From positions 390,543-454,542 of the forward strand of contig KN832566.1 in the NCBI GenBank assembly GCA_000827205.1: a stretch of DNA of 64,000 nucleotides, written 5' to 3'. The DNA comes from Plicaturopsis crispa FD-325 SS-3. Its lineage: Eukaryota > Basidiomycota > Agaricomycetes > Amylocorticiales > Amylocorticiaceae. The translations under genes were made by a program, and so were the position numbers. How positions within the stretch are numbered: position 1 is the first letter of the stretch; every line of letters begins with the position of its first letter. Shown piece after piece: positions 6,250-38,191 of this stretch. The notes beneath the pieces are model-generated. The model was not told the DNA's origin and did no database searches. It was given only the letters and a program-made list of their open reading frames with translations.

Positions 6250-6871
6250 TCACGAGAGATTGCTAAGGAACTGCATTAGATCAGCCATTCCACTGCAAAC
6301 ATATCGTAAGTCAATCGATAGCCATAGTAGATACTAAAATAAGTACTGTACCTAGCGACAGGATCACTCGAGCCCGACGCAAGAGGCGTCCCGGGAAGTA
6401 AGAAGGGGCCTGCCGAGCTGTTACCCGAGGTCGAACCATTGGTAGCATTGGCATTTCCAGCACCGCCGTTCAGCATGTTCAGAAGATATATGATGAACGG
6501 AGGGAGTGTTGAACCGCCCCCAGGGGTGCTGTGTGTGCGATAAGCCACCGGATTCATTGAGGGGGAGGAAGTACGAGTCTGTTACCTGCCGCTCCCGCCT
6601 CCTAAGGACGTCTCATTCCCCTGCCCTGAGCTATTCCCGGGGCTGTTATAGAGTAGATTAAAAGAGTGCGTAGACCAGGAAGATGTGATATCAAATACCC
6701 GGAGCCCAGGAATGGTAGGGTAGACGGAGTGCTGTTTCCGCCGTCGGGTATCGAAGCATTTGCGTCTCTGGCAAGGTTAATCCCAGCACCAAGTATAGGC
6801 GCCGCAGAAGACGGGACTGAGGCACCCATTGCAAGCGCTGCAACGAAGAGCGTGGTGGATGCGCGAACCAT
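6250..6871 (-). CDS. Small secreted Gly/Ser/Asn-rich protein
   Basis: Four exons splice into a protein of about 150 residues. It opens with a signal peptide, MVRASTTLFVAALAMGAS followed by VPSSAAPI. A Gly/Ser/Asn-rich chain follows with several N-glycosylation sequons (NAS, NST, NSS, NET, NAT, NGS). A short hydrophobic stretch, FIIYLLNML, sits mid-protein. After the last intron the protein ends SGMADLMQFLSNLS and a TGA at 6250-6252. No cysteines are visible in the mature part, so it is not a hydrophobin or a classic Cys-rich effector. The signal peptide resembles those of the two repeat proteins at 33.1-37.1 kb (pattern M[VF]xxS...AALA...AAP), and the promoter motif is shared. Function unknown. 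Confidence 0.78.
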
Positions 6872-7852
6872 TGTGACGTGTTGGACGTGAGAGGGTTGAT
6901 AGCGATTAAGGTGCGGGCGTAGAGTGCAGGCGTATAAGTGAATAAGACGTGGGTAGACCAGTACCCGTGAAGAAATGAAAGTGCAAAGGGGACGTTGGGA
7001 CGAGCGCAGCTGGGGGATGCATGTCTCGCGACAAGTGCTCTATAAAGCCTGAGGTGGAGCAAGGGGGCCCTGAAACAGTCATGGCTGTACAAATTTCGGG
7101 GGTGCAATAATAATAGCAGCGCCGGCCGTTAGTAGTGGTTCCGTGCTGGGCGCAAGTGCTTCAAGCTGTTATAGGCCCTACACAAGGCAGGCCAGTCTGA
7201 GGGTTACTCGGAGATCGTTCGAGCCCAGGTTTGAGCACGATTATCTACAAAAGGTGGCCATCAGATGCAGAGCTATATCAGGGAATCGCGCACCTGCACG
7301 AGCACTGAGCAGTGGCCATAGTACCTGAACACACACTGAATCCAAAGTGCTGAAGATTTTGAAGGGCTCATAATATAGCCTTCCAACCGGGATGAAGGTC
7401 CAACGCTGTATGAATATAGAAAGGTAAGTATGTATGTAGCATAGCACATGAACTGTTCGCGCTCACCACGGCGGCGAAGGAGGCGCGCCACGGTCACAGC
7501 CACCGCCGCCATCAGACGCGTTTAGTATGTAACGCACTCATATGTACCCATGTCGCGCTTCTGCTTCAACAAAATTGTCTTCTCGAAATTCGCTTGTTCT
7601 GAATGTTGTACAAGACAAGTTTATGGAAAGCACCATGCATAGGATCCACTCATCACCTCGATCCGACCCCGCTGCGACCCCCAAACTTGAAGGCCCCGCC
7701 ACGCTGACGTAATCTGACACCCCAGTGTCGCCCGTCCAATTTATTGGGGAGAGCAAAATCCGATCCTCAGCGGGTATTTGAGCCCCAACTTCGAGCTTTC
7801 GACGCTCACAACCTATCCGGCACCCTCTCTGCAAGTAGTTGGTGCAGTCGCC
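6872..7852. other. Divergent intergenic region, secreted protein / ACC1
   Basis: About 980 bp between divergent genes. Besides the core promoter at 7002-7044, it should hold the ACC1 promoter and leader. I see no gene; open frames here lack family features. Confidence 0.5.
7002..7044 (-). promoter_or_regulatory. Core promoter: TATA-like box plus CCCCAGCTGCGCTC motif
   Basis: Read on the minus strand, TATAGAG (7038-7044) is followed about 22 nt later by ATCCCCCAGCTGCGCTC (7002-7018), about 130-150 bp upstream of the secreted-protein start codon. The same arrangement occurs in front of the secreted repeat proteins at 33.1 and 36.4 kb. The spacing places the CCCCAGC element about where transcription would begin, so an initiator role is inferred. 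Confidence 0.6.
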
Positions 7853-10800
7853 ATGTCCGTTTACGATCATTCAAAAGTGTCTTCATATATCGGTAAGTGG
7901 ACGCGAAAGTTTCAGCGCGTGTATTGTCTTTAACCTCTCGCGCAGGCGGGAACACTGTAGAAAAGGCCGCGCCGGGACGAGTGACCGATTTTGTTAAAGA
8001 AAATGGTGGACATACTGTCATAACGAAGGTACTCATTGCAAACAATGGTGCGTGCATTCTGCAGGGGACCATGCTACTGGATGCCCAACGCCTCGTGCAG
8101 GTATCGCGGCCGTCAAAGAAATTCGTTCCATCCGACAATGGAGCTACGAGACATTCGGCGCTGAGCGCGCCGTCGAGTTCACTGTCATGGCTACGCCAGA
8201 GGATCTCAAAGTGAACGCCGAATACATCCGCATGGCCGATCGGTACATTGAAGTTCCCGGCGGCTCGAACAACAACAACTACGCGAACGTGGACCTCATC
8301 GTTGATGTCGCCGAGCGCGCAGGTGTGCACGCTGTATGGGCCGGGTGGGGCCACGCGTCCGAGAACCCGCGCTTACCAGAGAGCCTCGCGGCGAGCAAGA
8401 ACAAGATCGTCTTCATTGGCCCCCCGGGGAGCGCCATGCGCAGCTTGGGCGACAAGATTTCGAGTACGATCGTAGCACAGAGCGCGGACGTGCCAACAAT
8501 GCCGTGGTCCGGGACAGGCATCACAGACACGACCCTTTCGGATGCTGGATACGTGACCGTACCGGAAGACGCGTACGCTGCCGCGTGTGTGACGAGTGTA
8601 GAGGAAGGTCTGGTGAAGGCTGAGCACATTGGGTGGCCAGTGATGATTAAGGCGAGCGAGGGTGGAGGAGGAAAGGGTATCCGAAAGGTCGACGCGCCTG
8701 GCGCATTCAAGAACGCGTACCACGCCGTCGCTGGAGAGATTCCCGGTACGTGTTCGTTTTTACTTTTGATATTCACGCGTCTTACTCTTCATAGGCTCTC
8801 CCATATTTATCATGAAGCTTGCCGGACAGGCGCGGCATCTGGAGGTCCAGTTGCTCGCCGACCAATACGGAAACGCGATCTCCCTCTTTGGACGTGACTG
8901 CTCCGTGCAGCGACGGCACCAGAAGATTATCGAAGAAGCGCCAGTGACCATCGCGAAAGAGGAGACGTTTGAGCAGATGGAGCGCGCCGCCGTGCGTCTT
9001 GCCAAACTCGTCGGCTATGTTAGTGCAGGAACCGTCGAATGTTAGTCCATTGGAATGAATCCATATGCCGTGCTGACGGTTTTCCAGACCTATACAGCCA
9101 CGCGGAGGATGTCTTCTACTTCCTCGAGCTCAATCCCCGTCTCCAGGTCGAGCATCCGACGACAGAGATGGTGTCCGGAGTGAACCTTCCGGCAGCGCAG
9201 CTGCAGATCTCCATGGGTATTCCTATGCACCGCATCCGCGATATCCGCCAACTGTATGGCGTCGCGCCGAATGGCTCGTCCGAGATCGATTTCGAGATGT
9301 TGAAACCGGAGGCGAATCAGCTTCAACGCAAGCCTCGCCCGAAAGGCCATGTCGTCGCAGTCCGTATTACCGCGGAGAACCCTGACGCCGGCTTCAAGCC
9401 ATCCTCTGGTGTCTTGCAAGAGCTCAACTTCCGTTCTAGCAACAACGTCTGGGGCTACTTCTCCGTCAGCAGTGCCGGAGGGCTGCATGAGTTTGCCGAT
9501 TCGCAGTTCGGTCACATCTTCGCTTACGGCGAGGACCGTGGGGAGAGCAGGAAGAACATGATCGTTGCGCTGAAGGAGCTCAGCATTCGTGGGGACTTCC
9601 GTACGACGGTCGAATATCTCATCAAGCTCCTCGAGCTCGAGGCGTTTAAGGAGAACACGATCACCACCGGCTGGCTAGACTCCCTCATCAGCAACAAGCT
9701 CACTGCTGAACGCCCGGACGTCACTCTTGCTGTTATCTGCGGTGCGGTAACGAAGGCGTACATGGCATCGGAGGCGTGCTGGGCTGAATACAAGCGCATC
9801 CTCGACAAGGGCCAGGTCCCTGCGAAAGATGTGCTCAAGACCGTTTTCGGGATCGACTTCATCTATGAGAATGTACGGTTCTCATTCACCGCGGCGCGCT
9901 CTTCGTGGACCGTCTGGACGCTATACCTCAACGGAGGCAGAACTATGGTAGGCGCGCGCCCTCTTGCTGATGGAGGTCTTCTCGTCCTTCTCGACGGGAA
10001 GAGTCACTCGATATACTGGCGGGAGGAAGTTGGCGCGCTGCGGCTCATGGTGGACGCGAAGACGTGCTTGATCGAGCAGGAGAATGACCCCACTCAGCTG
10101 CGCAGCCCCAGTCCGGGGAAGCTGATCCGATTCTTCGTCGACAGCGGAGACCACATCAATTCTGGCGAGCCGTACGCCGAAATCGAGGTATGTTTTCACT
10201 CGTAAATATCGCAATTTCATCACTGATTAATTGACGGCAGGTCATGAAAATGTACATGCCTCTTGTTGCAGGAGAGGACGGCATAGTCCAGTTCGTGAAG
10301 CAGCCTGGTGTCAGCCTGGAGCCCGGCGACATTCTGGGCATACTGACTCTTGACGACCCTGCCCGGGTGAAACACGCGAAGCCTTTCGAAGGCCTACTAC
10401 CTCAGATGGGACGCCCGGGCGTCATCGGAAACAAACCTCATCAGCGGCTCATTCTCTGCCTGAGCGTCCTCAACGACATCCTCGATGGATTCGACAATCA
10501 GGCCATCATGGCGTCGACTCTCAAGGATCTCATCGAAGTCCTACACGACCCGGAGCTACCTTACTCCGAGGTCACAGCGATCTTGTCTTCGCTTTCGGGA
10601 CGCATGCCCTCCAAACTCGAGGATAGCATTCGTGCTGCGATTGAGACTGCCAGGGCCAAGGGTGACGGCCACGAATTCCCCGCCGTGCGCATCAAGAAGG
10701 TCCTCGATCATTACTTCGACGACAACGTCCTTCCCCAAGACCGGACTATGTTCCGCAGCCAGCTCGGCCCTCTGTTCGACGTGATCGAGAGGTTTAGCCA

Positions 10801-13800
10801 TGGCCTGAAGGGCCACGAGACGACGACCATTGCGAACCTCTTGGAACGCTACGAGGCGACGGAAAAATTATTCGGTGGAAGCATCGAGGCCCGTGTGCTT
10901 AAGCTTCGCGAGGAGTATAAGGACGACCTGGACAAGGCTATTGCATTCATTTTGAGCCACATCAAGGCGCAGAGCAAGGCCAAACTCGTCCTTGCGCTCC
11001 TCGACTACATCAAGTCCGGTGCACTCAATGTCTCAAACACAGAGAGCAAGCTTTATACGGTTCTACAAGGGCTTGCATCCTTGGAAGCCAAGTAAGTAAT
11101 TACTGTCATTCTATCTCCGGATGGTTGTTTATCGCATCTGTGGGTAGGTCCTCTACAGCGGTCTCATTGAAGGCTCGCGAGGTGTTGATTCTCGGTCAAA
11201 TGCCTTCCTACGAGGAGCGCCTTGTTCAAATGGAGTCCGTGCTCAAAGCGTCTGTCACAAACAGCTACTATGGTGAATCAGGAGGCGTAAGAAGGTATGC
11301 TCCGTAATGTCGATCTTCATAGGGGATTTCTTGACAATCTCTGTGCAGGACACCGTCTGCAGATATTTTGAAGGAGCTCAGTGACTCGCGTTACACTGTG
11401 TACGATGTCCTACCTTCGTTCTTCAACCACGAGGACACCTCAGTCGCACTTGGTGGGCTTCTTAGTCTATAGAGACTCTACCTTAACTGACCGTCTTGTT
11501 GCAGCTGCATTCGAGGTATACATCAGACGTGGCTACCGCGCGTACACACTATTGTCGATCGACTACGAGGAGGGTGACGGTTTGGACGACGGCGAAGTTC
11601 CAAACGTAGTGACATGGCGCTTCAACTTGGGCCAATCTCACTCTCCTCCATCGACTCCGCGCATCACCTTTGGGTATGTTGTGAGAAACTTTCATCGATG
11701 ATACATACTGACAGGTCCCTATTTTCTAGCGAGAACCGGAGACAGGGTTCTGTCAGTGACCTGACATATATGATCAATCGTCATCAGTCGCAGCCTGTAC
11801 GCACAGGTGCTATCGCGTCTTTCCCAAATCTCGGAGCACTTTCTCGCGGCTTCGACAAAGTTGTAGCTTTCTTGCCTCCCTTTGACCTCACCGAGTTCCG
11901 CCAGCGTCATGGAGTCGATGCCCAGCCACCCAATGTTCTGAACTTCGCCCTCCGTATCTTCGATGAGGCAGACGATCTTTCGGAGGCGGAATGGTCGGAG
12001 AAGATTACTTCACTGATCAATGAGCGCGCGGCCATTCTCACCAAACGCGGAGTCCGTCGTGTTTCCGTCCTCATTTGCCGTCGTGGCCAGTATCCCACGT
12101 ACTTCACCCTTCGCGAATCCGAGGGTGTTTGGGGTGAAGAGCAAGCTATCCGCAACATCGAGCCCGCACTAGCATTCCAGTTGGAGCTCAGCCGCCTTTC
12201 GAACTACCAGCTTACCCCTTGCTTCGTCGAATCTCAACAAATCCACATCTATCACGCAGTGGCCAGGGAGAACCAGCTGGACAACAGGTTCTTCATCCGA
12301 GCTCTCGTACGCCCTGGTCGTCTCCGCGGCACGATGAGCACTGCCGAGTATCTTATCTCGGAGACTGACCGCCTGGTCACGAACATCTTGGACTCCCTGG
12401 AGGTAGTCATTGCGCAATACAGGAATGCGGACTGCAACCACATTTTCATGAACTTTGTCTACAATCTCGCCGTCACCTACGAAGACGTTCTGGAGGCCAT
12501 CGCTGGCTTCATCGAGCGCCACGGTAAGCGACTCTGGCGCCTCCACGTCACCGGCTCCGAGATCCGCATCGCGCTCGAAGACAGCGATGGGAATGTCACA
12601 CCCATCCGGTGTATCATCGAGAACGTGTCTGGCTTCATCGTCAACTACCACGGATATCAGGAGATCACGACGGACAAGGGCACCACGATCCTGAAGTCAA
12701 TCGGCGAGAAAGGCCCTCTCCACCTACAGCCTGTTCACCAATCGTATCCCACGAAGGAGTCGCTTCAGCCGAAGAGATATCAGGCCCATCTCATCGGCAC
12801 TACCTACGTCTATGACTTCCCCGACCTCTTCTCCAAGGCGCTTAGCAACGTTTGGGCCAAAGCTCGCCAGACCGATCCATCTCTTTCCCTTCCCAAGAAA
12901 TTCCTTGAGTCGAAGGAATTGGTCTTGGACGAGCACGATCTGTTGACTGAAGTTGACCGCGCGCCGGGCAACAACACGTTCGGGATGGTCGGATGGGTCT
13001 TCACCTTGAGGACACCGGAGTTCCCGCATGGCCGCAGGGTCGTTGTTATCGCCAACGACATCACATACAAGATTGGTTCGTTCGGTCCTACCGAAGATCA
13101 ATACTTCTACCAAGCCACCCAATATGCTCGGGAGCACGGCCTGCCTCGCGTGTACCTCTCTGCGAACTCTGGTGCCCGCATTGGTTTGGCCGAGGAGACC
13201 CTTAGCCTGTTCTCTTGCGCGTGGAATAGCGAAGGCCACCCGGAGAAGGGCGTCAACTACCTCTATCTTACGCCCGAGAACTATCTCAAGCTACAGGAGA
13301 AGGGTGAAGGCGCAGTCCTCACCACGGAGATTGAGGTCGACGGCGAACGCCAGTTCAAAATCACCGACATCATTGGCTTGCAGGATGGCCTTGGTGTTGA
13401 GTCACTACGCGGCTCCGGTCTCATTGCTGGAGAGACGTCTCGCGCATACGATGACATCTTCACCATCACGCTGGTCACTGCCCGCTCAGTCGGTATTGGC
13501 GCGTACCTCGTTCGCCTGGGAGAGCGTGCCGTTCAGGTGGAGGGTCAGCCTATCATTCTCACGGGCGCCCCTGCTCTCAACAAGGTTCTCGGACGCGAAG
13601 TCTACACGTCTAACCTGCAACTCGGTGGCACACAAATTATGCACAAGAACGGTGTGTCCCATCTGACCGCAAGTAGCGATCTCGAAGGAGCGACGCACAT
13701 CCTCGACTGGATGTCGTACGTTCCTGAAGCGAAAGGCTACCCCCTCCCCATCCGCCCCACCTCTGATACGTGGGACCGTGACATCGAGTATACTCCCCCG

Positions 13801-15057
13801 AAGGGTGCATACGACCCGAGATGGTTCATCGAGGGCAAGACAGACGAGCAGACATCGGAGTACTCGAGTGGTTTCTTCGACAAGGGCTCGTTCCAGGAAA
13901 CCTTGAGTGGTTGGGCGCAGACTGTCGTTGTTGGCCGCGCGCGCCTGGGTGGCATCCCGATGGGTGTCATTGCTGTCGAGACCCGCACCATCGAGCGCAT
14001 CGTCCCCGCGGACCCCGCCAACCCTGCTTCTTTCGAGCAGCGCATCATGGAAGCCGGCCAAGTGTGGTATCCGAACTCTGCCTACAAGACCGCCCAGGCC
14101 ATCTTCGACTTCAACCGCGAAGGCCTTCCGCTCATCATCTTTGCTAACTGGCGTGGGTTCTCCGGAGGACAGCAGGACATGTACGATGAAGTCTTGAAGC
14201 AAGGCTCCAAGATCGTCGATGGTTTATCGAGCTATAAGCAGCCAGTGTTTGTATACATCGTCCCCAACGGTGAACTTCGCGGCGGCGCTTGGGTCGTTCT
14301 GGACCCATCCATCAACAAGGAGCAGATGCAGATGTACGCAGACGTCGATGCGCGTGCTGGTGTGCTCGAACCGGAGGGCATCGTTGAGATCAAGATGCGT
14401 CGCGACAAGATCCTGACGTTGATGGAGCGCTTGGACGAGACATACGCCAGCCTCAAGCGTGACAGCAAAGACGCCTCGAAGACGGTCGAAGAGCGTGCTG
14501 CTGCAACGGAGGCACTCGCTGCTCGCGAAAAGTTCCTGCAACCTTCGTACAAGCAAATTGCTCTGCTTTACGCTGACCTTCACGAGTGAGTCGATCCAGT
14601 ATAGCTCGCCGTACAAAGACTAACTGTTATTGCCAGCCGTACTGGACGTATGGAGGCGAAAGGCTGCGCGAAAGCTGCGGTATGGAAGGATGCTCGGAGA
14701 AAGTTCTACTGGGCTGTGCGCGGTCGAATCGCTCGTTCATCGGCCCTTGCGCTGCTCGCGGAAGCAAGTCCAGAATCCTCTCCGGAGTACCGCGTTCAAC
14801 TCCTCGAATCGCTTGCCTCGATCGATGCAACTACTGACGCTCGCACGGTGGCGGAGTCTCTCGAGAAGTTGGACTTGACTGCCACACTCGCACAGCTGAA
14901 GAGCGACTATCTCATGCGTCAACTCCTGGACCTTTCGCGCGAAGACCGCAAAGCGACGATAGACGGCCTTGCGCGGTTATTGGGCAACTTGCCAGACGAG
15001 GACAGGTCATTATTGTCAGAAGCGTTAAAAGCGTCGAACCGGTCACCTGGTGAATAA
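7853..15057 (+). CDS. ACC1: Acetyl-CoA carboxylase (multidomain, cytosolic)
   Basis: Biotin-dependent enzyme making malonyl-CoA, the committed step of fatty-acid synthesis. The start at 7853 gives [14 protein letters not shown], then an intron and [15 protein letters not shown]. Domains in order: biotin carboxylase ([37 protein letters not shown]-grasp loop [14 protein letters not shown] about 8650-8690, [20 protein letters not shown] about 9125-9185); biotin carrier with the biotinylated lysine in EVMKMYMPL (about 10240-10262); the central region; then the carboxyltransferase halves in the long exon ending at 14589 ([44 protein letters not shown]). A final exon from about 14637 encodes the C-terminus, ending SNRSPGE. 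The estimated length of about 2,200 residues matches fungal Acc1. No breaks seen. Confidence 0.97.
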
Positions 15058-16100
15058 TCTTTCACTATGTAATGCGTGTGCGTCTTGCTCATCGCCCGTG
15101 TTGCAGCGCCTCCTTCCTACTCCTAGATTGTTGGACATTCGTCGACTGGCTTTCATTCATGTGTATTTGTGTTCGTCTTGTTTTGCTACTTGTTCTGGGT
15201 TATCGTATCGCATCTGCTTATCATGTCTCTCAATATCTTGCATAGACGCAATCATCTACCTACCTACTTACATAGATTTGGATATCTCTCAATGCTACTC
15301 ACTGCACATTTCACCGTCATGCTTGTGCGGATCACCGAGGATTCTGGTCAGATTCTGGTCAGTGGGCCTGCGCAACAGGTGAGCGCGCGGCCTCCGTTTT
15401 CTCCAAATGAGCGGGATTCGAACCCACGCCATGAGCTCCTCGGCGGTGAGTCCCCTCTAAAAATGGGTGGAGCTTGGATGTTCATACCTGTACCCAAGTA
15501 ATTTGCAGAGTGGGATTCGAGCCTTGCCTGCGCTGGTAATGTCTAAGTCTCAGTGGTGGGATTCGAACCCACGCTACGAGCTGAGTCCCCAATAATGATA
15601 AAAGTGAGTGGGATTCGGAAGCTGACCCTTGCGCACAAGCAATTTGAAGAGTGGGATTCGAGCCCTCGCTCTCTCGGGGCTGCAATTCGGGTGAGTGGGA
15701 TTCGAACCCATGCCATAAGCTCCTCGAATCCGACTCGGCCAGTCTTACGGGGCATGCCCCGATACAAAATAGCATATGGCCGCACGCCGTTCGGAATACA
15801 GGGAGAGATAGATACAAATACTCGCTAGCGAGTACCTGCTATATGATCATACTCTGTCGGACCATATGCATGTTTTTTGTCCGAAATCACTCGTCAGAGT
15901 CATATTCAGACGAGCACCTCACGACTACTACCTCCCCATCAGGCAATATTTAATTACAGCTTCATTAGCCACATCTTCTACATCGATGATAGCGGGCTCA
16001 AAATCGATTCGTTTGCCTCCGTTCCTTGACAGAACATGTTGCGTTGCTCAATTCCCGTCAGTTTCATCTCGGGTAGTCTGCGGTATGCTGAGCAAAAAGC
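15058..16100. other. ACC1 3' region and tRNA-fragment cluster
   Basis: The first about 300 bp downstream of ACC1 are T-rich and look like 3' UTR and terminator. The T-arm/B-box repeats at 15408-15715 follow. The rest, up to the tRNA gene, shows no coding signal. Apparent open frames reading GFEPT-like peptides are translations of the tRNA-like repeats. Confidence 0.5.
15408..15715 (-). repeat. Six tRNA T-arm / B-box-like fragments
   Basis: The block RGTGGGATTCGAACCCA, the complement of a tRNA T-arm with the pol III B box GGTTCGAATCCC, recurs at about 15408-15430, 15508-15529, 15555-15575, 15605-15625, 15648-15670 and 15692-15713. Copies 1, 3 and 6 keep the B box intact; the others have changes. 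Three are followed by a related tail (compare ATGAGCTCCTC, ACGAGCTGAG and ATAAGCTCCTC). No copy has a D-arm, anticodon arm or acceptor partner, so none is a full tRNA. All share the strand of the tRNA-Leu about 400 bp downstream. They may be decayed tRNA copies or TFIIIC-only sites. Confidence 0.75.
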
Positions 16101-16218
16101 TGATGAGAGTGGGATTCGAACCCACGCCCTTTCGGACCAGATATCACGATGTGTGATAAGTGTGTTCCAATGGAACTGATCCTTAGTCTGGCGCCTTAGA
16201 CCGCTCGGCCATCTCACC
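16101..16218 (-). tRNA. tRNA-Leu(AAG) with a 38-nt intron
   Basis: Class II tRNA read on the minus strand. The acceptor GGTGAGA pairs with TCTCATC (one G-U pair), with discriminator A. The D arm contains TGGCCGAGCGGTCTAAGGC (A box). The anticodon stem CCAGA pairs with TCTGG, and the loop CTAAGGA gives anticodon AAG (bases 16182-16184), hence leucine CUU. The intron at 16143-16180 starts one base after the anticodon, the standard position for nuclear tRNA introns. A long variable arm (CC GAAA GG) and T arm GTGGG/CCCAC with GGTTCGAATCCC follow. A TTTTT pol III terminator lies just downstream (16093-16098 on the plus strand reads aaaaa). Confidence 0.95.
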
Positions 16219-16602
16219 TTGTATAAATGAGTTGGCCAGAAAACTAAGACCGTACGGAAAATTGCAGTCACGCTGATACCAACCTTTAACATATCTTACA
16301 TAACTTATCCTCCTGAGACTTTCAGACGAGTACCCTGCACCAAGTAAGAGCTCGTGCCCTACAAGTTAGTTACAGTACACGGACTTGTCATGTAAAATTT
16401 CGAGTCAAGATACAACACCAAGGGCTCATGAGTTGTAGGGGCACGTATGCACATCGCGCGTTGACTAAAAGTTGACGGGTGAATTGAGTTGGCTGTATAA
16501 ACTCTCCCGCTTGAGCTGCGTGGTACGAGGGACTTGTCCGGTATACCAAGGATAATACCCGTCAAGACTGGGCTACCGATGTATCCAGCTGAATGGTCAT
16601 TT
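16219..16602. other. Intergenic region between tRNA-Leu and DHODH
   Basis: About 380 bp containing the upstream side of the tRNA gene and the 3' flank of the DHODH gene. No coding, repeat or RNA signal noticed. Confidence 0.4.
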
Positions 16603-26470: not shown

Positions 26471-29400
26471 TTAGGCGCCCTGGACATAAGGTGCCAATCC
26501 CGCCGCTTGCACCTTTGCCGGGTCCTCCACACTCAGCGCGGTCACCAGCTCGATCAGCTGTGCCCGGACCTCGTCGGTGACCTGGTCCGGTGTCCCGTTA
26601 GGATCCAGCACATGCGCGAACACAGCAAGCAAACGATCCATGTAGGGATACAGTGCCTGCGGGTTGTGCTTGAACAAGTGGAACAGTGCGCGGAAGACGG
26701 GGATGTTCTCGAGCAGGTCGTGCTTCAAAGGGAGCGTCTCGATGAATGTGGGGAGCACCTGATCAAGGGGCACTGCGGCGGTGTTGCGAGCGATGAGGCG
26801 GCCGACGGCGCCGGCTGCGTTATCCCGCGCGTTATGTCTAGCCGCGGGGGCGTCGGGCACGACAACGAAGAGCGGCCGCAGGGCTCCGAGGAGATGGAGA
26901 TACTGCGGCGACAGGTCGTTGAGGCTGTTTTCGACGAGGAGACCAACGGCAAACGCAGCGTTGCTCTGAACCTCGGCATCCTCGTCGCTTAGTGCGCGGT
27001 AGAAGAGTTCTAGGAGGGGTTCGGTAAACACGGTAATGGACTCCTTCATGCCAGAGATGACCTCCGCAAGGCATCCGATAGCGGCAGAGCGGTCACTGAG
27101 GGAACGGCCCTTTTTCTGAGAAAGAAAGAGGTAAGGGATGTGACTTGCAACCGAGGAGACTGAAGACTAACGTAGAATTTTGCGATGAGGGGAAGGAACG
27201 CCCGGAAAGCTTGCACGAAGTCGGCACCAATTGCGCCAGCCAAAGCAGCCACGAGGTCGCCGGCTGAGGAGATCAAAACAGAGTCGTACTCAGCCTGGTC
27301 GTCGAAGGCCTCGTCACTTTCATCCTGGTCAGGGTCTTGCTGGCATAGAGCCTTTTGCTCGAGCACCTGCATTGCTATGCTACAGACCTGGTCGATTTCT
27401 TCGGAGCCAAAGTCAGAACCAAGGTAGGACAATCTCGGAACCACGATGCTCACGGTTTTCGATAAACGCAGGTCCAACTTTGGTGATCGTTTCAGCAAGG
27501 CCTTCGCAAAGGGCAGCGACAACGCTCCTATTTGAAAGAGTTGTGGTCAGTACCAACGAAGCACAAATGTCATTCAGATGTGAAGATTATCAGTTAGAAT
27601 TCGTGTTAGTCTCATGCACCCTTTGGGCGTCGAAGTGAGCTGAGTTTACGAAGATATTTGCATCATGCTGTCGTAACAAAAACGACGACAGGCCTTTCAA
27701 AATAAACAGGCCACTCACTTGTTATCTTCGGACTCGTACATATCGAGGAGAGGCGGCAGGACATGTCTAATCAGGTCCTTGACATTGGGACTGAGAGGAA
27801 CGATCTGAAAAAAGGCAATTAATTGTGAGCATCAGGTGGACAGTGCGAGGTGGGCTACGTTGCTCACCACAGTGACACCGGGCTGCCAATCTTCGTGGTC
27901 AGAGAGATCGTAGAAGGTCCGAATGATCTCTAACAGCGAATCCGTGGCGGATTTCCTGATCCCCTCGTAATAGTGCGGCAGCAAAGTGACAAGGTCCAGC
28001 GTGGATTGCTCGACGAAGGGAAGGAATTGATTGCGGGTGGCGGCAAACAATGTTCCGATGGTATCCGCGGCGATCTCCTTCTCCACGGCAATGGCGCTGT
28101 TGACTTCGAGCATTTTGTCGACATCGATGTCCTCGAGTTCGGCCTGAGCGTTGCCGTTTGCATCCTTCTCGTCGACAATAGTGATTGCATTGGAAGGGGA
28201 CGATCCAGAGGCGAAAGCGGCAGCAGTCTCGGGGTCGGCAACTGCGCAGGAATTGAGGGTCATTTAGTCAAGGTACGTCGCAGACTAATGGAAAAAAAAA
28301 CGCACTGCTAATGCCTTCCTCGCCATGCTCGGCCTGTTTGCAGCTGGCCAGAAGGGGAGGCACGACGTTTGGCAGGTAAGGAGCGAACTCCTCGCCGAAC
28401 ACGCGGGCCATCACACCAAAGAACAGGAAACTGCACTCCCTGAGCCGTGCACTGCCCATCTCAATACCCTGGAACGCCTGCTTCATCATGTCGCCGAAGT
28501 ACGGCCTGAACTGGTCCTTGCCTACAGCCTCTGCGAACGTGCCAACCGCATCCATGGTGATGCCACGGAGTTCAGTCTCTTCGCCCTCGCCTGTAAGAAT
28601 GAGGAAGTGCTGCAGACGATCCATGGTGGGCTGGAAGTAAGGCAGGAACTTTTCCTTGGATGCGTGCGCTGCGCTGCCGATGGCTCCGGTAACGACAGCC
28701 TTGACGTTGATCGGAGCAGTCTCAAGGAGGCCTGCGAGACGCTCCATGATAAGCTGGAGGTATTGGTCAATAACATCGTGCATAATCTCAAGGAGAGCAT
28801 CGAGGGAAGTGCACGCCGAACGCTGGGTAGCGGGGTCGTTGACAAGGGTCATGATGGCCTACCCAGGAAAGGTCAGAAAAATTCAAAAAAATCGAGCTAA
28901 GTGATCTTACAGGGACAAGAATCTGGTGCTTCTCGGCACAGTCGTCCTCCAGCCACTCACAAAGGCAGCTCACTGCAACGCATGTTGCCTTTCTGACGCT
29001 AGCATCCGGGTCCTGAAGACCCGCTTCGATGATAGGCCAGACCTGGCCCATTAGCGGCCTCATGAACTCGCTGCAGCCCTCCACGGAGACCCCAAGGGCA
29101 AGGATAGCACCGCGGCGGTTGGCAGGGTCTGGCGAGGCAACATACTGTTGGATGAGGGTGCGAAGTGCGGGGAAGACTTGGGTTGGAGGCAACGAGGTAG
29201 CAAGGCCGTCGATGATACGGAGGGCCGACTATGAACGCCGTATTGGTAAATGGTTGCAACATTAATGAACAGCACTCACACGAGAGGGGGCGTCATCATC
29301 AATATCCTCAGGCTCTTCTTCGGTAGCGATGGGCATCAAACCCTCGAGGATCGCAGGCGCGAGATTGTGGCCTTGGATCTTCGATTTTTTACTGTAGACA

Positions 29401-30681
29401 GAACGATGAGAATGGGCATGTCATTTCGTAAGGTTGACGTACTATTGAACGGTCCAGTTGAGTGCATTGAGTGCAAGAACACGGAGCTCTGCATCCAAAT
29501 TGCGGTTTCCACCGCATGCAAGGAGGAATTGGGCAAGTTGGGGAATGTGCTTGCTTAGAACGGGGATTTCCTGGAAAAACATCAGAAAATCAGCGCGTTT
29601 CCATGGGGTATGCGACTTACGAGAATGAGAAGGGTCTCGATAACATCGAATAGTTGGCGAGAGCCGACTTCATTGCCAGCCTCAAGGCACTGGCCAATGA
29701 CATTGATGATAGCTGGAAGTAGAGCTTGGAAAGAGGCCTGAATATTATACAGGTTAGCAGTGCGTAGTCACGTAATGCGGGAAATACACACAATATCGGC
29801 CTTATCATCTGCGTCGATGTATTGCGCAATTACGCCCAGGGATCTAGAGGTAGGATGAATACAGGAAGAGATAGCGGGAGTAGAGTAGACGTACCGAACA
29901 GTTGTGATCCTGACCTCCACACTCTCCGGATCTACCAAAAGTCCCTCGAACAGTTTGAAGAAGCTCTGCAGTTGCTCCTGGAATCCCTCGACGATGCTTT
30001 CAAGAACCGTGAAGAGGATGAACACGCCGACTTCACGATGCGCGACTTGAGGGGATGTAGCAGTTTGATGCAAAAAGGGAAGAAGCTGCGGCCAGTTGCC
30101 GAGAGGAATTTCGATGCTGGCGATCGCGCCGACGACGCGGGCTGCTGAATGGCGGACCGAGTTACTTGAAACACAAACTCAATAAGCGACGAGCAAGCAA
30201 ACAATCAAGTACTAACGTCGGCTCGGCGAGGATGAGCTCGGGGAGTTTCGCCTTGATCTGTTCACGCTCGTCTTGAGGAAGCTGTGTCCATAGATCTCCG
30301 CTGTTTTGCCTTATACGTTTCCGTAACTCAACGGCGGACAGTTGCCGCACCTATTGCGCTATTTAACGAAGAAAACATCACGTCTATTGGAAGTATACAT
30401 ACACCTTGCTCAGGAGAACTAGCGAGAATGCTAGCGAGCGCAGATATGCATGCCGGGGTTTTGAAATATTTGTTCAATTGAGCAGTGGCCTAACTAAACG
30501 CGTCAGAATCTTGCAGCTGTCAAATGGGAGAGACGATTTACGCACAGCTTTAACCTGCACCGTATCGTTGGTGGTCGACTGAACAAGCAGAGCGTGCAGC
30601 TCTTGCACGAAGTTGGGCTATATGGATCAGGATCAGATTATCCGTGCACGTCCTGTGCAGCGATTAGATACTCACATCCAT
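26471..30681 (-). CDS. KAP123: Karyopherin/importin-beta, Kap123 / importin-4 type
   Basis: Nuclear import receptor for ribosomal proteins and histones H3/H4 (known for Kap123 and importin-4). Many exons (about 15) on the minus strand. The start codon exon encodes only MD and joins PNFVQELHALLVQSTT across an intron. The importin-beta N-terminal (RanGTP-binding) domain follows: TAQLNKYFKTPACISALASIL and VRQLSAVELRKRI. The rest is HEAT repeats, for example NRRGAILALGVSVEGCSEFM, VRKATCVAVSCLCEWL, LREIMHDVIDQYLQLIMERL-like helices and an acidic loop with ELEDIDVDKMLEVNSAI. The C-terminus reads VQSNAAFAVGLLVENS through ending GLAPYVQGA. About 1,100 residues, the family's normal size. Confidence 0.9.
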
Positions 30682-33132
30682 TTCCCGTATAATAAAGAAA
30701 CGAGAGACGAAAACCAGAGGAAAAGAGAAACGGCGAGAGAGTAGCAAAGTGAGGTCAATGAGACAGAAAATCAGCGTTCCCAAATTTTTGGCGGTGTTTG
30801 AAATTTGGCCTGATCATGATCAGATTGTCGCGCACGCGTTCGAGAGGACCTCCCATCGTAACATATCGAAATCCTTGCACAGTTCGTTTCAACTTGTTCC
30901 TTTGGCCGTGCTACTCAAGTTCTACTTGCAGGGATATCACCAGTTTCACGCACATTCTCAAGAATTAATAAGGCCCATCGAACGCAGGCTAGTGAGCTCA
31001 CTCTTAGTTGTCCAGAGCGTTCAAACCTCACGTTCAACAGCGCCTCGAAGCTTCTACGCGATCGAAGTTCGCGTGCGTCCGTCTGTTGGCAGGAGAAACT
31101 GCTATGACCATACAAACGAGCACCGGCTTCAAGTTTGAGCGGCTCAAAAAATCAAAACGCGTCAGCCTTGCGTGTCGTCAAACATGTCGCGCACACACTT
31201 GGCGATTCCATGTGTAAACGTGAGTCAGAGAGTGCTTACTCCAGTATATGTAATGCGGTACGTGGTGCGTGTCTCACTCTTAAAAAAAACAAAGTCAGGT
31301 CTATTGAAGCCAGCACCAGACATGATATTGTCGCGTCATACGCCGCTATCGGTAGGCTTGGAATTTCCCCCTCCTTTCTGGACCGACCGCACTCGGATAT
31401 AGGCAGCGTATTTCCTTGCCGAGCCGTCACCAGGCGCACCAGGTCCATGCATGCGTAAACGTGTCTTCCCGCTTTGACGTTACCACTGCATTGAAGGCTG
31501 CGAGCGGGGATCTCTCGTGTCGATAGCAGTGCACTGAAGGCGAATACGTTGTTCGCAAACGACGAGGGCCTAGACTGACTTCCGGGGTGTCCATGTGTAT
31601 CCCTGACGCCCTTTCGACTCAAATTAATCGTACAGCGTCCCCCTTGCCGCTCAAAGGACTTCAGCTCGACTAATGACCGGATTCTTCTCGGACCTGCATG
31701 GTATGTATATCGTATGCGTTCATTAACCAATGTTTCGAACGGTACGGTTCTCTCTCTGCCTCATTAGCCTTATCAAATCGTTAAAATGCCTCAAAGCAGG
31801 CGTGCGTCGCGAGCATTGCATCCGCGTTTTACGCTTTGGCAACAATAACCCCCCTCCGTGGCCCAAAATCCGAAGCCTTTAATTAAACGTGCACAATGCC
31901 GAATGTTGTAACCAGGACAAAGCAGAAGCCTTCAAACACAGCTCTATTCACGTGGCTTACCCGTGTAACTCATCGTCGGAAGTGATTTGCCACCTTCCTC
32001 TATTGACCATACAGTCCAGCGCTGAGGTACGTCCATTGTTCATGTCTTCTTGCCATTGCCGCATGGGGCCCTTCTGAAATCGGGCGATCCTTTCGCGAAA
32101 CTCCGCCAACGGCTATAAGACCGCTAGTGCAAGCCCTTTCTGCCAACCCAGTCCGCTTGTCTGCGACCCTTGACATTTCTCGGGAGACCAAACACCCCAT
32201 TTATCCATTATCGAATATGCTCCGGATGCGCCCATCTGTCGATGCCTTGCGTGTGTCGCTCCGCCCTTGCTATGTATCCTCTCCGCGTCCGCTGGGCATC
32301 CGCGCTACACCGCCCCGCTCCCCATCACCTACCTCAACACAATATTCCACGACAGAGCTGTGCGTCTCCCAAACACACTGTGTGCATCAGTAGCCTATAC
32401 TCACATGATGCGCGCTCTCCTTTAGATGCGATATCGATTGCGAGAAATACGTGCCCTCGGCAGACAATGGACGCAGTCAACGCCGCCCTAGACGACCCAT
32501 CAAGCGCCGATTTACCCTGGCGTGGAAACGTCTCACAGAGGCGATGCGTCCATCTGAACGGATGTCGTTCATTCCCCGCGGCTTCACATTAGTGACCTAA
32601 ATCTAGGCAGTCTGGCAGTACTTGGGCACGACGACGGACAATGCATCGGAACGAACGAACAAAGGGACTCGGATCCATTTCTCTCTGCTATGTACTACCT
32701 TATATCATTTATGGCGTTATTGATATATGCTCGGCCTTTTGATCATTGTACATGTACTGTATTGCTTTCGGATCTTCATTTCCCATGTATCATGGCCTCT
32801 TGCTTTATCCCTATCCCTCTTTATTCTGGCCTGCATCCATGTAAACACCGAGCCACGATATGATCACTTAGCCTCTGCGACCATTGTACTTCCCTTCTTG
32901 CGCGCATAGCCCTTAGAGCTTAGAGAGCGCCTCCGTATTACTCACATCACCATGCTTCAATGCAGTCAAGTGTTTCGTCTTTTTGGAATTAAAGGATGGT
33001 AATACATGCGTAAGTATGGAACTACTATTGAATATCAGACACCGAGTTGAACACTGCTGTAGAGTAAACAACACAAGCTCCCAGTGTCACGGTTGTATCA
33101 TAAATGGTCGTCAAACATGTTAGTTTGGAGAA
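30682..33132. other. Large gene-poor region (2.45 kb)
   Basis: Between the karyopherin promoter and the 3' end of a secreted repeat protein. Open frames of 60-164 residues occur on both strands (largest 31236-31730 minus) but have no recognisable composition or motifs. A plus-strand transcript is conceivable: TATAAG near 32113 is followed by CT-rich leader-like sequence and, from about 32690, T-rich sequence resembling a fungal 3' UTR. I cannot support a protein. A lineage-specific gene or noncoding RNA remains possible. Confidence 0.35.
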
Positions 33133-34936
33133 CTAATCTAGCTCGTCAGCGGCGAACTCGCGGCGGAAGAGGTCCTCGACGCTGCGCGTGAACTCGGCAG
33201 TGGGCTCAAGACTACAGCAGAGAAGTCAGATGCCAGGACGCAGAGTGAGACACAGGAGCAAGCACGTACGGTTCGACATCGCGGGACGTTGCGTTCTTGA
33301 TTTTGCCGATGACTTCGTTGACGCCCGCAGCAACGCTACCAAAAGCGGTACCACCAGCGACCGCGCCGCCCACACCGCTGCCCTTTCCACCACCGCCAGA
33401 GGCGCGCGATGTGTGGTTTTTGATCGAGTTGATAAGGCCGTTGAGCGCCTGGAAAAGGCGCGATCAGACTCCGCGACAAATCGTACACGAAGTGAATAAC
33501 ATACTTGGCTTGCGGCAGCGGCGGAAGCTCCGTTTGCGGCACCACCAGCAACGACACCCGCACGCGTGGTGTGGTTTTTGAATTCGTTAATGAGGCCCGT
33601 GAGCGCCTGGTCATGGTATCGTTTAGTACGAGTTCTAGCATCGAGTGCAAATATAGTTACCTGGTTGGCGGCGGCGGCGGCAGCGCCACCTGCAGCTCCC
33701 CCGGCTACGGCGCTCCCAGTTCCACCAGCGCGCGAGGTGTGGTTCTTGATCTCATTGATCAGACCCGTGAGTGCCTAACGAAAACAAGCATCATCAATAT
33801 CTGCGAGCATACAAGAAGCATGTGCAATATGTACCTGGTTCGCAGACGCGGCAGCAGCACCGGCGGCAGCACCGCCAGCCACCGCACTACCGGTCCCACC
33901 GCCAGAAGCGCGTGAGGTGAGGTTTTTAAGCTCGCTAATAAGCCCAGTGAGCCCAGCGGACGCACCGCCGGCTGCGACACCACCAGCAGTCGCGCCGCCG
34001 AGGCCACTGCCTTTGTCGCTGCTACCTTTGCCGCCACCACCGCCAGAAGCGCGTGAGGTGAGGTTTTTGAGCTCACCGATGAGCCCGGTGAGTCCAGCTG
34101 CAGCACCGCCCGCTGCTACACCACCAGCAGTGGCGCCGCCGAGACCACTGCCTTTTCCGCTGCTGCCTTTCCCGCCACTGCCACCAGAGGCGCGCGATGT
34201 GTGGTCTTTGATCGAGTTGATCAGCCCCGTCAAAGCCTGAATAACATCATATGTATACGCGCACGATCGGAAGTAAATCGGGGATGCTTACCTGGTTTGC
34301 TGCAGCTGCTGACGCACCGTTGGCGACACCACCGGCAACGGCCCCGGCGCGTGCTTCCACATCGGCGCTACGCCTGAAGAAACAATGCGTTAGCCACCCA
34401 TGAAAGGCGTAGTCACACAAGGGGGACGTACAACTCGAGCTCGCGTGATATGAGGTTGGAGAGCGCGCTGATAGTGCGATTGACGGCGATCGAAGCGCCG
34501 CCCTTGGCTGCAGCGCCTTCGCCCTTCTCGGCGACGTGTTCGGCAGTAGACTCCTCTTCCGAGGACTTCCCGGTGCTGCTCGTGGTAGCTGGCTCAGACG
34601 AGCCCTTGCCTCCACCGCCGCTGCCAGCACGCGCCTCGAGATCGTCCAGCTGGCGCGCAATAGCCTCGATGATATCGCGACTGGACAGCACCGGTTAGTA
34701 TTCTGTTAGAGATTTAGCGGCAGAGTGTCTTACCTGTTGAGGTTGGCGCCTTGCGCAACGGGGAGCCTGGGGGGGACGACGGGGGTTGTGTGATTGCCTA
34801 GGATGGGCGCGGTCAAATCCTGGCCTTGGGTCCCCTCGAGTGTGCTTTTGCGCGCCTCCAGCGGAGCGATTGGGGCAGCATACGACGGTGCCGCGGCAAG
34901 GGCGGCGGCCAAGAGCATAGTGGAAGCGTAGACCAT
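33133..34936 (-). CDS. Secreted protein of seven LTGLIN...IKNHTSRA repeat modules
   Basis: The signal peptide MVYASTMLLAAALAAAPSYA is followed by APIAPLEARK. About eight exons give roughly 430 residues. A modular region follows a variable Ser/Glu-rich segment. Modules: ALTGLINSIKDHTSRA, GLTGLIGELKNLTSRA, GLTGLISELKNLTSRA, ALTGLINEIKNHTSRA, ALTGLINEFKNHTTRA, ALNGLINSIKNHTSRA and a diverged VNEVIGKIKNATSRD. Each is an amphipathic helix ending in an N-glycosylation sequon (NHT, NLT or NAT), separated by Gly/Ala/Ser-rich spacers with GGAAAGAAAA-like runs. Several introns fall just before a module (after ...ANQ), so modules and exons match. The tail is RSVEDLFRREFAADELD. No known domain recognised; function unknown. 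Confidence 0.85.
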
Positions 34937-36415
34937 TTTGATATTAAGTGTTGTGAGTGTTGTCGTGAATGTGGAGTTGTAGTCGTCAAGGGAGGGGCGA
35001 TTAGAACAGCGTTGAACGAAGGATATGTGTATAGATATTCAATAGGAGCCAAGGTACCAGTACCTATAGCAGAGTGTGTTTTCGAACGAAACGATGGGAG
35101 TGGGGAGCACGGCTGGGGAATAGTTGGTGTGCTTTGCGCGCATTTTATACCTTCAGCCCGAGCAGGGACTGAGGGTGGGTCTGGTGGGCATGCAGCATGC
35201 CATGGTGCGGCATACCGAGCTACGCGAGTTACGCGCTCGTAGATCATCACGAGAGTGGAGGGAAGTGGATATCGACTCTACCCGCGCTCCAAGGGTCTGA
35301 GAGGGCCACGTTCAGCGGTGAGTGCTTGGCATCATCGTCGTTGATTCATAGATGGCTAGGTCAAGTCCACGTACCCAAAAGCATTTTCTGCTTCTCCGGG
35401 CCCGGCTAGGCGCTGGTGGGTCAGTCCTTCGTAGTCACAAGTGGATCACCATCGAGGGATGAGCCACATGCTCGGCGTACTTTCTATCGGGCCTGCAAGT
35501 GCGTTCAAGAGGCAAAATCTAAGGAACAACAGTACAGCGTGCCAGCTTGGTGCCAGCGCGTAAGCACGGACTCCACACCACGACCTCGGCCGACAACTTG
35601 TGGCAGGTGTTGAGGGCCGATCCCGAGGGTCAGCGACGTGGTGAGCTCGCAGATGTTCCGCATAGTGAATGGGGTTGTCCGGAAAGGGGCAGCTTGACAA
35701 GAGCGGATATGCTAGGCAGAATATACTGCTTGACAGTAGCACGCTCAGATGACCTTCGAGACTTTGCAACAGTACATCAGTCCAAGCCCCACACCTCATA
35801 AATCTCGCAATTTAGCTGACCTCTGTCCAATTCTTGTCACTTAGGATGCTGTGTCCAGAAACTCCCGACTTTTCAGGCAACGTAGCCCTTGGTAATAACA
35901 CGTCGGGACTTGCAGTCTGCCTCGCCCTTGTCAGGGCAAAGCGGAGCTCGTACGTGCAACGATATTGCGTTTGATCCTTCGAAACTGACAGAAGTTGACG
36001 GCTGATGTCGAGGGCCAGTCGAGAGTCGCATGTTCAGTCGGCAATCGAGGGCAGATGCAAGCTGGAGGAGCCTTTGGAGCTTGGTTGGAGCCGTTTATGG
36101 AGCGCCGCCTTTGTTTACCTTTGTTACATCTCAACGCCTTTGCCGATCCTCCACACCCATATGCGGTAAGCATATTTCCCGATACGGACTCTGCTCAAGG
36201 TTCAATATGACAATATGGTTTTTAGCCTGATTGAAAACGCAAGTCCAGCTAAGAGAGCCTTGACTGGCTTTAATAATTGCAGTAACAAAACCGTCATGTC
36301 TGCCAAGGCTACAAGAATCTACAAAGTACTTTACATCTCTCAAGCATGTCTCCCTAAGTCAGCTCCACGCTTCCCCCAAGACTCCCGATACAAAACATGT
36401 CCATTAAAGCGTCAT
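34937..36415. other. Intergenic region between the two secreted repeat proteins
   Basis: About 1.5 kb. The left 210 bp is the leader and promoter of the module protein. The rest shows no gene or repeat that I recognise; short frames (such as 35446-35799 minus) look like chance. Confidence 0.4.
35101..35149 (-). promoter_or_regulatory. Core promoter: TATAAAA plus TTCCCCAGCCGTGCTC
   Basis: On the minus strand, TATAAAA (35143-35149) is followed 25 nt later by ATTCCCCAGCCGTGCTCCCC (35101-35121). The TATA box is 207 bp before the start codon of the secreted module protein, almost the same distance (204 bp) as in the neighbour at 36.4-37.1 kb. Confidence 0.7.
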
Positions 36416-37128
36416 CTAGTCAAGCTCTTGGGCCCTCAGCACGTGGCCGAGGATCTCCTCTACACCCCGAGCAACGATCGCGCGCGATTGAGAGTCACCA
36501 CCAGGCACGGAGCGCTCGTTGAAGAATCCGCTGTCCCCAGATGCGATTTCACCACCAGGTAGCGAGCGACCTTCGAAAAAGCCGCTGTCTCCTGAGGCAA
36601 TTTCACCTCCGGGTAGTGAGCGTCTATTTAGTGTGTCAGATAGAGCAGCGTGGTACCATGCAGATCCGGAAACATACCCCTTGAAAAAGCCACCATCTCC
36701 GGACGCGATTTCACCGCCAGGGAGGGAGCGGCCGTTAAAAAAACCGCTGTCTCCTGAGGCAATCTCGCCACCAGGTAGCGAACGACCTTCGAAGAAACCG
36801 CTATCTCCTGAGGCGATTTCACCCCCGGGAAGCGAGCGTCTATTAATTGCGTCAGATAGAGTAGCGTGGTATAATTTAGATCCAGAAATATACCCGTTGA
36901 AAAAGCCACTATCTCCAGATGCGATTTCACCACCAGGGAGGGAGCGACCGTTGAAGAAGCCAGAGTCTCCTGAGGCGATCTCACCGCCAGGGAGTGAACG
37001 CCTGATCATTGAATGGTGAGAACGTAAAGAAATGCACTTCAGAAATTGGCGTACCGGTCGAGAGGTGCAGCTGCAGCGCCTACGGCAAGAGCAGCCACGG
37101 CGAGCATAGTCCTCGATGTGCAGAACAT
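36416..37128 (-). CDS. Secreted protein of seven 18-residue tandem repeats
   Basis: The spliced product is 183 residues: signal peptide MFCTSRTMLAVAALAVGAAAA, then PLDR, seven near-identical copies of RSLPGGEIASGDSGFFNG, a half copy RSVPGGDS and the tail RGVEEILGHVLRAQELD. Copies differ only near the end (FFNG, FFEG, FFKG, FFNE) and by one S-to-G change. An Arg-Arg pair (LDRRS) precedes the first repeat and could be a Kex2 site; the repeats themselves begin with a single Arg. Three introns, at 37002-37054 (53 nt), 36840-36893 and 36624-36677 (54 nt each), exactly restore the frame and the repeat register. No cysteines; acidic and glycine-rich. Function unknown; a repeat peptide precursor or wall protein are options. 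Confidence 0.88.
36624..37001 (-). repeat. 54-bp coding tandem repeat with duplicated introns
   Basis: Two plus three coding units of 54 bp, separated by introns at 36840-36893 and 36624-36677. Two further units lie left of the second intron (to about 36516). The two introns are homologous to each other (about 80% identical, both 54 nt, GTATRTTT...CTGACRC...TAG). Intron and repeat unit therefore multiplied together as one higher-order block. Confidence 0.9.
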
Positions 37129-38191
37129 GATATATATATAATAGGGATCGTGTGGTTGTGTCGAGAACGCGAGGTAGCGAATGCGTTGTGGATGATGAGG
37201 ATGCTGAAGATGAATGGGAGACGTAAATTGATACAAGCAGCGATTGCCTGGAAAAATGTGAAGTGGTGTGTTGAGGGAGAAGATGTGGAGGTGAGCGCAG
37301 CTGGGGAACCAATGCGGCTGAAAGTCGAGGGCTTTATACCGCTACTAATCCTCCTGTTTGGTCGTACCCGTGAGGACTGGCTCTGAGACAAGCGTTGAGC
37401 AGCTGAGTGGGGTGCTAGGTACACACCTGGCCCTGAATTAGCTACGCGCTTCGAGAGCAGCAAAATCAACCAGAGCTTGATAGGTGTGGGGTTATCAGGA
37501 AGCGGGGGTGGAATCGCTATTCAGTCCACTCCAGCATACAATCGCTGCATGTAGATGGAGGCAGACCGAATAAGAGGCGACTCAATTTCTCTGATTGTCT
37601 CGAGCGCGAGGCGATGCAACTCGCTCATTTCTAAATCAGCACATTGCCAGCGATTCGTGGTTGATCCTAGACTGCGAACTCACTTTAGATATAGCAGCAC
37701 CTACTCTCAATACTCATGTCGGTTCACATGTTTGCCACCTTCCTATCATGAGGGACCCTCTGTGAGTCCTGAAGAGTTGATGCGCATCATTTGGTATCAG
37801 TGATTGGAGTATTGGCAAGAGTACATGGCGACGGCCTCGGTCCCAAACACGACACAACCCTCTACCTGACAGTGACACATTGGCACGATGGGGTCGAAGT
37901 AACGGCAGCGTTGCGTGCAGCGGAGTCCACTGTCAGCGATTATTTAGTAACATGTGCGTCTTGAAGGGATGGAGACTCACCAATCGGCCGCAACGTTCCA
38001 GCGCAAAAGTGTTGGGCCAAGCTACACGTCCGGATGGCGTGATCATAAGCAGCTACGCAGTAACCATGGTTCGGTAGACAAAGCAGAAGATACAGGGTGT
38101 ATATAAATAATGATGTAGTCCGGGTAGATAGATGTAGATTAAATAAAACTTCCGGCTGCTACTGCAACACCAGTCTGATACAAGTGACATT
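37129..38191. other. Intergenic region upstream of the 18-residue-repeat gene
   Basis: About 1.06 kb. The leader of the repeat gene has a TA repeat (ATATATATATA) directly before the start codon. No further gene was recognised before the 3' end of the next minus-strand gene. Confidence 0.4.
37291..37338 (-). promoter_or_regulatory. Core promoter: TATAAAG plus GGTTCCCCAGCTGCGCTC
   Basis: On the minus strand, TATAAAG (37332-37338) is followed 27 nt later by GGTTCCCCAGCTGCGCTCAC (37291-37310). This matches the element before the secreted protein at 6.25-6.87 kb over CCCCAGCTGCGCTC, 14 of 14 bases. Confidence 0.75.

What the first reader, a model, noticed from the sequence alone, without database searches (positions are those of the whole stretch)
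6250..37338. Three secreted genes share a TATA-to-CCCCAGCTGCGCTC core promoter
In front of the secreted genes at 6250-6871, 33133-34936 and 36416-37128, the minus strand shows a TATA-type box, then 22-27 nt later ATCCCCCAGCTGCGCTC, ATTCCCCAGCCGTGCTC or GGTTCCCCAGCTGCGCTC. Two copies agree over 14 of 14 bases (CCCCAGCTGCGCTC). The spacing puts the motif at the expected transcription start. TATA boxes lie 204 and 207 bp from the start codon in two genes and 167 bp in the third. The genes' mature proteins differ, but the signal peptides are alike (MVRAST, MVYAST, MFCTSR with AALA...AAP). This suggests a regulon of fast-evolving secreted proteins marked by a conserved initiator-like element.
Basis: partly seen in the sequence, partly recalled or inferred. 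Interest (0 to 1): 0.85.

Follow-up and report, generated by a model that had tools for sequence, protein, structure and literature searches.

The report
Shared promoter for secreted fungal repeat proteins
About two dozen genes for mostly repetitive, quickly changing secreted proteins in this fungus appear to share one start-of-transcription signal, which could let researchers find such genes by their promoter rather than by their protein.

Summary
The three window promoters carry TATA plus CCCCAGC[CT]G[CT]GCTC as described. The exact 14-mer occurs 5 times in the 33.2-Mb fungal genome, reversed control 0. Twenty-two sites have a TATA-like box 31-37 nt before CAGCNGNGCTC and the surrounding consensus; 21 precede a signal-peptide ORF at +110 to +192. 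A fixed rule scored 20 of 22 members, 4 of 43 chance hits and 192 of 3418 random positions. A protein search with one repeat type listed ten loci: nine behind this promoter, one behind an N gap. A second element, GGTAC[ACT]GG, lies at +39 to +59 in 15 of 22 and in none of five control windows; it led to four more secreted genes among eight regions read. Mature proteins are mostly tandem repeats; some fit the Kex2-processed repeat (KEP) definition. Best reading: an old gene family with fast-changing interiors, held together by a family-specific core promoter. Transcription starts and co-expression could not be tested.

The parts
7039..7044 (-). TATA box of gene 1 (TATAGA), 32 nt before CAGC
7002..7017 (-). 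initiator-like motif of gene 1, TCCCCCAGCTGCGCTC
6952..6965 (-). downstream element of gene 1, GGTACTGGTCTACC, at +47
35144..35149 (-). TATA box of gene 2 (TATAAA), 34 nt before CAGC
35105..35120 (-). initiator-like motif of gene 2, TTCCCCAGCCGTGCTC
35051..35064 (-). downstream element of gene 2, GGTACTGGTACC, at +51
33133..34936 (-). gene 2: signal peptide MVYASTMLLAAALAAAPSYAAP, tandem Gly/Ala-rich repeats, C-terminus AADELD; introns approximate
37333..37338 (-). TATA box of gene 3 (TATAAA), 35 nt before CAGC
37293..37308 (-). initiator-like motif of gene 3, TTCCCCAGCTGCGCTC
37235..37248 (-). diverged downstream element of gene 3, GGCAATCGCTGCTT; keeps an inverted repeat, lacks GGTAC
36416..37128 (-). 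gene 3: signal peptide MFCTSRTMLAVAALAVGAAAAP, 7 copies of RSLPGGEIASGDSGFFNG-like repeat, C-terminus RAQELD

Best explanation
These genes form one old family of secreted, mostly tandem-repeat proteins. The interior changes fast while three parts are kept: a core promoter, a signal-peptide exon ending in a phase-2 intron, and, in many members, an acidic C-terminal [ND]EL[DN] tail. The core promoter has a TATA box; an initiator TTCYYCAGC[AT]GCGCTC whose CAGC starts 31-37 nt after the first base of the TATA-like box; and an element GGTAC[ACT]GG near +47, often part of an inverted repeat GGTA-N4-6-TACC. Most likely TBP on the TATA box places polymerase II so that RNA starts in the YYCAG of the motif. 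The unusually long initiator and the +47 element would be read by a sequence-specific factor that switches this set on together, and the leader then yields secreted precursors, some cut by Kex2. Shown here: the elements, their spacing, and their association with signal-peptide genes. Inferred: the transcription start, the factor, joint regulation, processing.
For: Columns before CAGC that one search's pattern did not specify are conserved (T 18, T 17, C 21 of 22), while spacer columns mostly carry little information, with exceptions such as C 16 of 22 at -21. TATAN18-40CAGCNGNGCTC gives 41 rows, 38 distinct places, control 27; 34 places were read; 28 of these have TATA 31-37 nt before CAGC (about 8 expected if the 27 control hits spread evenly over the spacings), 21 of 28 with a signal-peptide ORF against 1 of 6 at other spacings, Fisher p 0.014. 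20 of 22 members against 4 of 43 chance hits by one rule. Protein search with one repeat type: ten loci, nine behind the motif, one with its promoter in an N gap. GGTAC[ACT]GG in 15 of 22 at +39..+59; 0 of 22 in four control windows and 0 of 18 in a fifth; top 8-mer family of the leader, 11 of 14 representatives, maximum 9 in 20 shuffles. First-intron phase 2 in 19 of 20 spliced models. Local groups on C3, C5, C6, C7, C8, C11, C13 and C17 fit duplication.
Against: No RNA data. Members are paralogues: by my grouping about 14 independent groups, not 22. One member (C11:721447) has the promoter but no signal-peptide ORF. Four genes found with the second element have a changed TATA box (L099) or initiator (L100, L102, L103), so the exact initiator is not essential to all. 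Second-element patterns without the initiator are not enriched: 35 rows against 81 in the control, 38 against 65. A looser initiator pattern is not either: 98 against 137. Upstream of TATA one 7-mer family (CTCCACG, up to one mismatch) is in 12 of 12 sequences against at most 11 in 20 shuffles; 8-mers do not exceed shuffles, so a further upstream element is neither shown nor excluded. The signal-peptide rule is home-made, not SignalP; gene models are approximate.
Confidence: 0.7

Rival explanations
1. Plain paralogy: the promoters look alike only because the genes were copied and have not yet drifted; the motif has no special role.
For: Local groups and close pairs exist, for example C5:405623/408909 and C7:1532069/1534804.
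Against: Across the 22 members the flanks and most spacer columns are near random while the motif and its spacing stay fixed. Mature pieces of the seven members put into one query (m01, m02, m08, m09, m18, m21, m22) matched only those seven genes, 26 of 26 rows, so coding parts have diverged beyond recognition where the motif has not.
Confidence: 0.12
2. The conserved tract is read in RNA: a 5'-terminal leader AGCNGYGCUC plus a small hairpin GGUA-loop-UACC near +47 that controls translation, stability or localisation.
For: Both would lie in the transcribed leader if RNA starts at YYCAG. GG[TC]A-N4-6-T[AG]CC is in 13 of 22 at +30..+75, against 0 in four control windows and 1 of 22 in a fifth, with paired changes in m03 (AGTA..TACT), m20 (GGCA..TGCC) and m18 (GGCA..TGCT).
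Against: The left half is kept where the right half is lost (m08, m09, m14, L102, L103), so pairing is not required. Predicted leader folds use this hairpin in about 8 of 22 by eye. The first part sits at TATA distance.
Confidence: 0.13
3. A general initiator of TATA genes in this genome, not specific to this family.
For: YYCAG resembles ordinary initiators (recalled); TATA at about -35 to -40 is reported for Cryptococcus (PMC11302930, passages seen). Of the 20 TATAAA-N-CCCCAGC hits, 13 are not family members, against 7 in the control, so a modest excess is left over.
Against: The leftover sites lack the GCNGYGCTC tail, and few have a signal-peptide ORF. The 7 non-family sites with the tail at the right spacing match the chance expectation. 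I raised this rival slightly (0.05 to 0.07) on rechecking.
Confidence: 0.07

Closest known systems
Oomycete INR+FPR core promoter (Phytophthora infestans; PMC3599244; search listing and passages including the abstract seen)
   Same: A long conserved initiator block and a downstream element (DPEP, about 26 nt after the start), present on part of the genes; INR+FPR is linked there to developmentally regulated and infection-related genes.
   Different: Different sequences; TATA boxes were not detected there but are present here; the combined block is on about 13% of genes there, here I know of about 26 genes; the downstream element here sits near +47.
Kex2-processed repeat proteins, KEPs (PMC6339444 passages; PMC7329392 passages; PMC9769878 abstract, passages and discussion)
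   Same: Signal peptide, tandem repeats and, in several members, dibasic sites between similar repeats, some followed by EP-type dipeptides as in STE13-type precursors.
   Different: Only part of the members meet the dibasic-repeat definition; in others single Arg separates repeats. The word promoter occurs 0 times in PMC6339444, 0 in PMC7329392 and 1 in PMC9769878 (I did not see that one place); upstream occurs 0 times in all three.
TATA promoters of Cryptococcus (PMC11302930, passages seen)
   Same: TATA 35-40 bp upstream of the start in a basidiomycete; TATA genes more often regulated.
   Different: Of the five further motifs found there I saw the letters of two (AAYKCCG, GGRNG), which are not these; no tie to one secreted family in the passages seen.

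Membership tests
KEP (definition of PMC7329392) | ER signal peptide | tested here: met
   20 of 22 by rule, 21 of 22 by inspection; not SignalP
KEP (definition of PMC7329392) | at least 3 repeats of 8 or more residues (none over 100) between KR/KK/RK/RR sites | tested here: inconclusive
   22 proteins, loose similarity cut: 3 or more similar fragments in m01, m03, m06, m07, m08, m10, m17, m21, m22 (9 of 22), but m03, m06, m10, m17 and m22 also hold fragments over 100 residues; window genes 1 and 3 fail, gene 2 (m17) is doubtful; several models are cut off
KEP (definition of PMC7329392) | tandem repeats | tested here: met
   Self-alignment score of 90 or more in 17 of 22; shuffle maxima 26 to 59 in the nine proteins tested with 15 shuffles each; gene 1 fails (27 against 30)
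Dikaritin/ustiloxin-type RiPP cluster | UstYa (DUF3328) gene close to the precursor gene | tested here: not met
   PF11807: 6 matches, at C1:2554k, C4:1216k, C10:439k and 443k; the nearest member is about 250 kb away
TATA-initiator core promoter | TATA box about 30-40 nt before the start, initiator at the start | tested here: inconclusive
   Spacing met in sequence; transcription start not mapped
Regulon | co-regulated expression | not testable with these tools
   no RNA data
Oomycete INR+FPR | YCAYTYY initiator with FPR 2 nt after it, no TATA box | tested here: not met
   The consensus here is TTCYYCAGC[AT]GCGCTC with TATA

The most novel reading that the evidence does not exclude
A family-specific, three-part fungal core promoter (TATA, a 16-nt initiator, and a downstream element near +47), read by a dedicated factor, forms with the signal-peptide exon a ready-made 5' cassette for expression and secretion, under which new repeat peptides keep arising or being captured.
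Probability: 0.25. Interest if true: 0.8.

Novelty: new variant of a known kind. Interest (0 to 1): 0.62.

Why it matters
Secreted repeat-peptide genes are hard to list and compare because their mature parts hardly align. A promoter that marks them would give a sequence-based way to find them, to ask whether they are expressed together, and to look for the factor that reads the motif. A downstream core-promoter element in a fungus would also be of interest; the listings and passages I saw described none, but they are a small part of what is in print.

Tried and rejected
3' splice site: YYYCAG|C could be an acceptor, but the fixed distance to TATA and the conserved bases after CAG speak against it. 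E-box (CAGCTG): not required, since 11 of 22 have CAGCTG, 10 CAGCAG and 1 CAGCCG. Inserted repeat carrying the promoter: no upstream 8-mer exceeds shuffles, though one 7-mer family does by one sequence. UstYa/RiPP cluster: not near. Pfam: for the ten proteins given, no match reached a curated cut-off; the best E-value below it was 5.9e-6. ATAAN24-32YCAGCNGYG was too loose, 98 against 137. A profile model was built, but this genome cannot be searched with it. Regions read and rejected: L101, L104, L105, L106 (4 of the 8, chosen by eye), L107, L108, L109. Of the 35 rows, 13 are members, 3 became new members, and of the other 19 rows 5 (4 sites) were read; the 4 non-member rows, the 4 places without a locus, and most non-member rows were not read. 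Conservation in other fungi could not be tested (no fungal collection). No structure was predicted.

Full report
Setting. The window is C13:390543-454542 of a 33.2-Mb, 49-contig genome. It looks fungal by its intron-split genes; an agaricomycete is my guess from recalled gene style and short introns, not tested.

Observation. The three promoters are as described. In the window alone a loose form of the motif is not rarer than chance (4 hits, 2.24 expected). The genome settles it: 5 exact 14-mers, 0 in the reversed control. With one mismatch and no TATA the motif is much less specific, 80 hits against 52.

Genome-wide test. TATAAA-N18-32-CCCCAGC: 20 hits, control 7; 7 of the 20 are family members, 13 are not. 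TATAN18-40CAGCNGNGCTC: 41 rows, 38 distinct places, control 27. Thirty-four places were read; 4 had no locus. Twenty-eight have TATA 31-37 nt before CAGC: 21 score a signal-peptide ORF at +100..+210, one of which (L062) I count as chance; 7 of the 28 are non-members, near the roughly 8 expected. Of 6 at other spacings 1 scored; Fisher p 0.014. The remaining 21 plus L003 (CATAAAA box, outside that pattern) make 22 members; 21 have a signal peptide by inspection. A slightly stricter rule scored 20 of 22 members, 4 of 43 chance hits and 192 of 3418 random positions; it missed the C11:721447 copy and, by one residue of the rule, C17:487082, which passed. Two members (C1:2301070, C3:1067739) were accepted with the downstream ORF in view, which is why the spacing-only count is given too.

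Protein test. A query made from the commonest repeat type gave 68 matches in ten genes: nine downstream of motif promoters, and a tandem copy at C8:876.4k whose promoter region is a run of N. A joined query of mature pieces from seven other members gave 26 matches, all in those seven genes, so these mature parts look single-copy while their promoters are shared. Members m14, m15, m16, m17, m20 and L099 were not searched this way.

Anatomy. Column information is high at TATA and at TTCYYCAGC[AT]GCGCTC and mostly low between (CAGC.G.GCTC is conserved by construction of the pattern, TTCYY is not). GGTAC[ACT]GG lies at +39..+59 in 15 of 22 ([GA]GTAC[ACT]G in 18 of 22); control windows had 0 of 22 four times and 0 of 18 once. 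I saw it first by eye in the alignment; the k-mer count came after (11 of 14 representatives, maximum 9 in 20 shuffles). Many copies form GGTA-N4-6-TACC (13 of 22; one control window had 1 of 22). Patterns with this element found L099 (23 rows, control 9) and L100, L102, L103 (35 rows, control 81), each with a signal-peptide ORF, though with a changed TATA box or initiator. By themselves the second-element patterns are not enriched. In several members a splice-donor-like sequence follows the element directly, suggesting a leader intron (by eye).

Proteins. First introns are phase 2 in 19 of 20 spliced models and fall at nt 62-83, at or just after the signal peptide, in 16 of 21 models. Interiors are tandem repeats in 17 of 22 proteins. 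Some are Kex2-type precursors, for example C1:2301070 and C7:1532069. C-termini read [NDQ]EL[DN] in nine members (m03, m04, m05, m08, m09, m10, m15, m17, m18), with variants NDLN (m19) and EGLN (m12), and probably in three more genes after an intron; not in m01, m02, m14, m20, m21 and L099; the rest are unsettled or not reached. Shared promoter, first exon and tail with unlike middles point to common descent with fast interior turnover; capture of new interiors by a 5' cassette is not excluded.

Literature. Of three KEP papers I saw passages of PMC6339444 and PMC7329392, and abstract, passages and discussion of PMC9769878. They hold the word promoter 0, 0 and 1 times. Other listings showed no paper that by title or start of abstract describes such a motif (one search found none); these are partial views (one search listed 12 of 19 papers, 10 of 111, 15 of 479), and the library lacks most subscription papers. 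The nearest analogue I found is the oomycete INR+FPR block.

Verdict. Observation confirmed; interpretation supported at the sequence level; mechanism inferred.

Noticed in passing
window 33133-33150 and 36416-36430; L090, L091, L092, L095, L097, L054: Many members share an acidic C-terminus [NDQ]EL[DN], unlike the usual HDEL/KDEL retention signal (recalled); role unknown.
   Followed up: partly
L082 (C11:721447): A full promoter with no signal-peptide ORF behind it, 1.1 kb downstream of another member's promoter; perhaps a decayed copy.
   Followed up: partly
L098 and L096 (C8:876001-878200): Tandem second copy of the C8:874530 gene, its promoter region a run of N.
   Followed up: partly
window 16101-16218: A 118-nt tRNA match by Rfam, not called by ARAGORN; probably intron-containing.
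   Followed up: no
L003, L072, L073, L102, L103 leaders: A splice-donor-like sequence directly after GGTACYGG, suggesting an intron in the leader of some members.
   Followed up: partly
C1:2554546-2555217, C4:1216395, C10:439447 and 443534: UstYa-family matches far from the members; possible separate RiPP loci.
   Followed up: no
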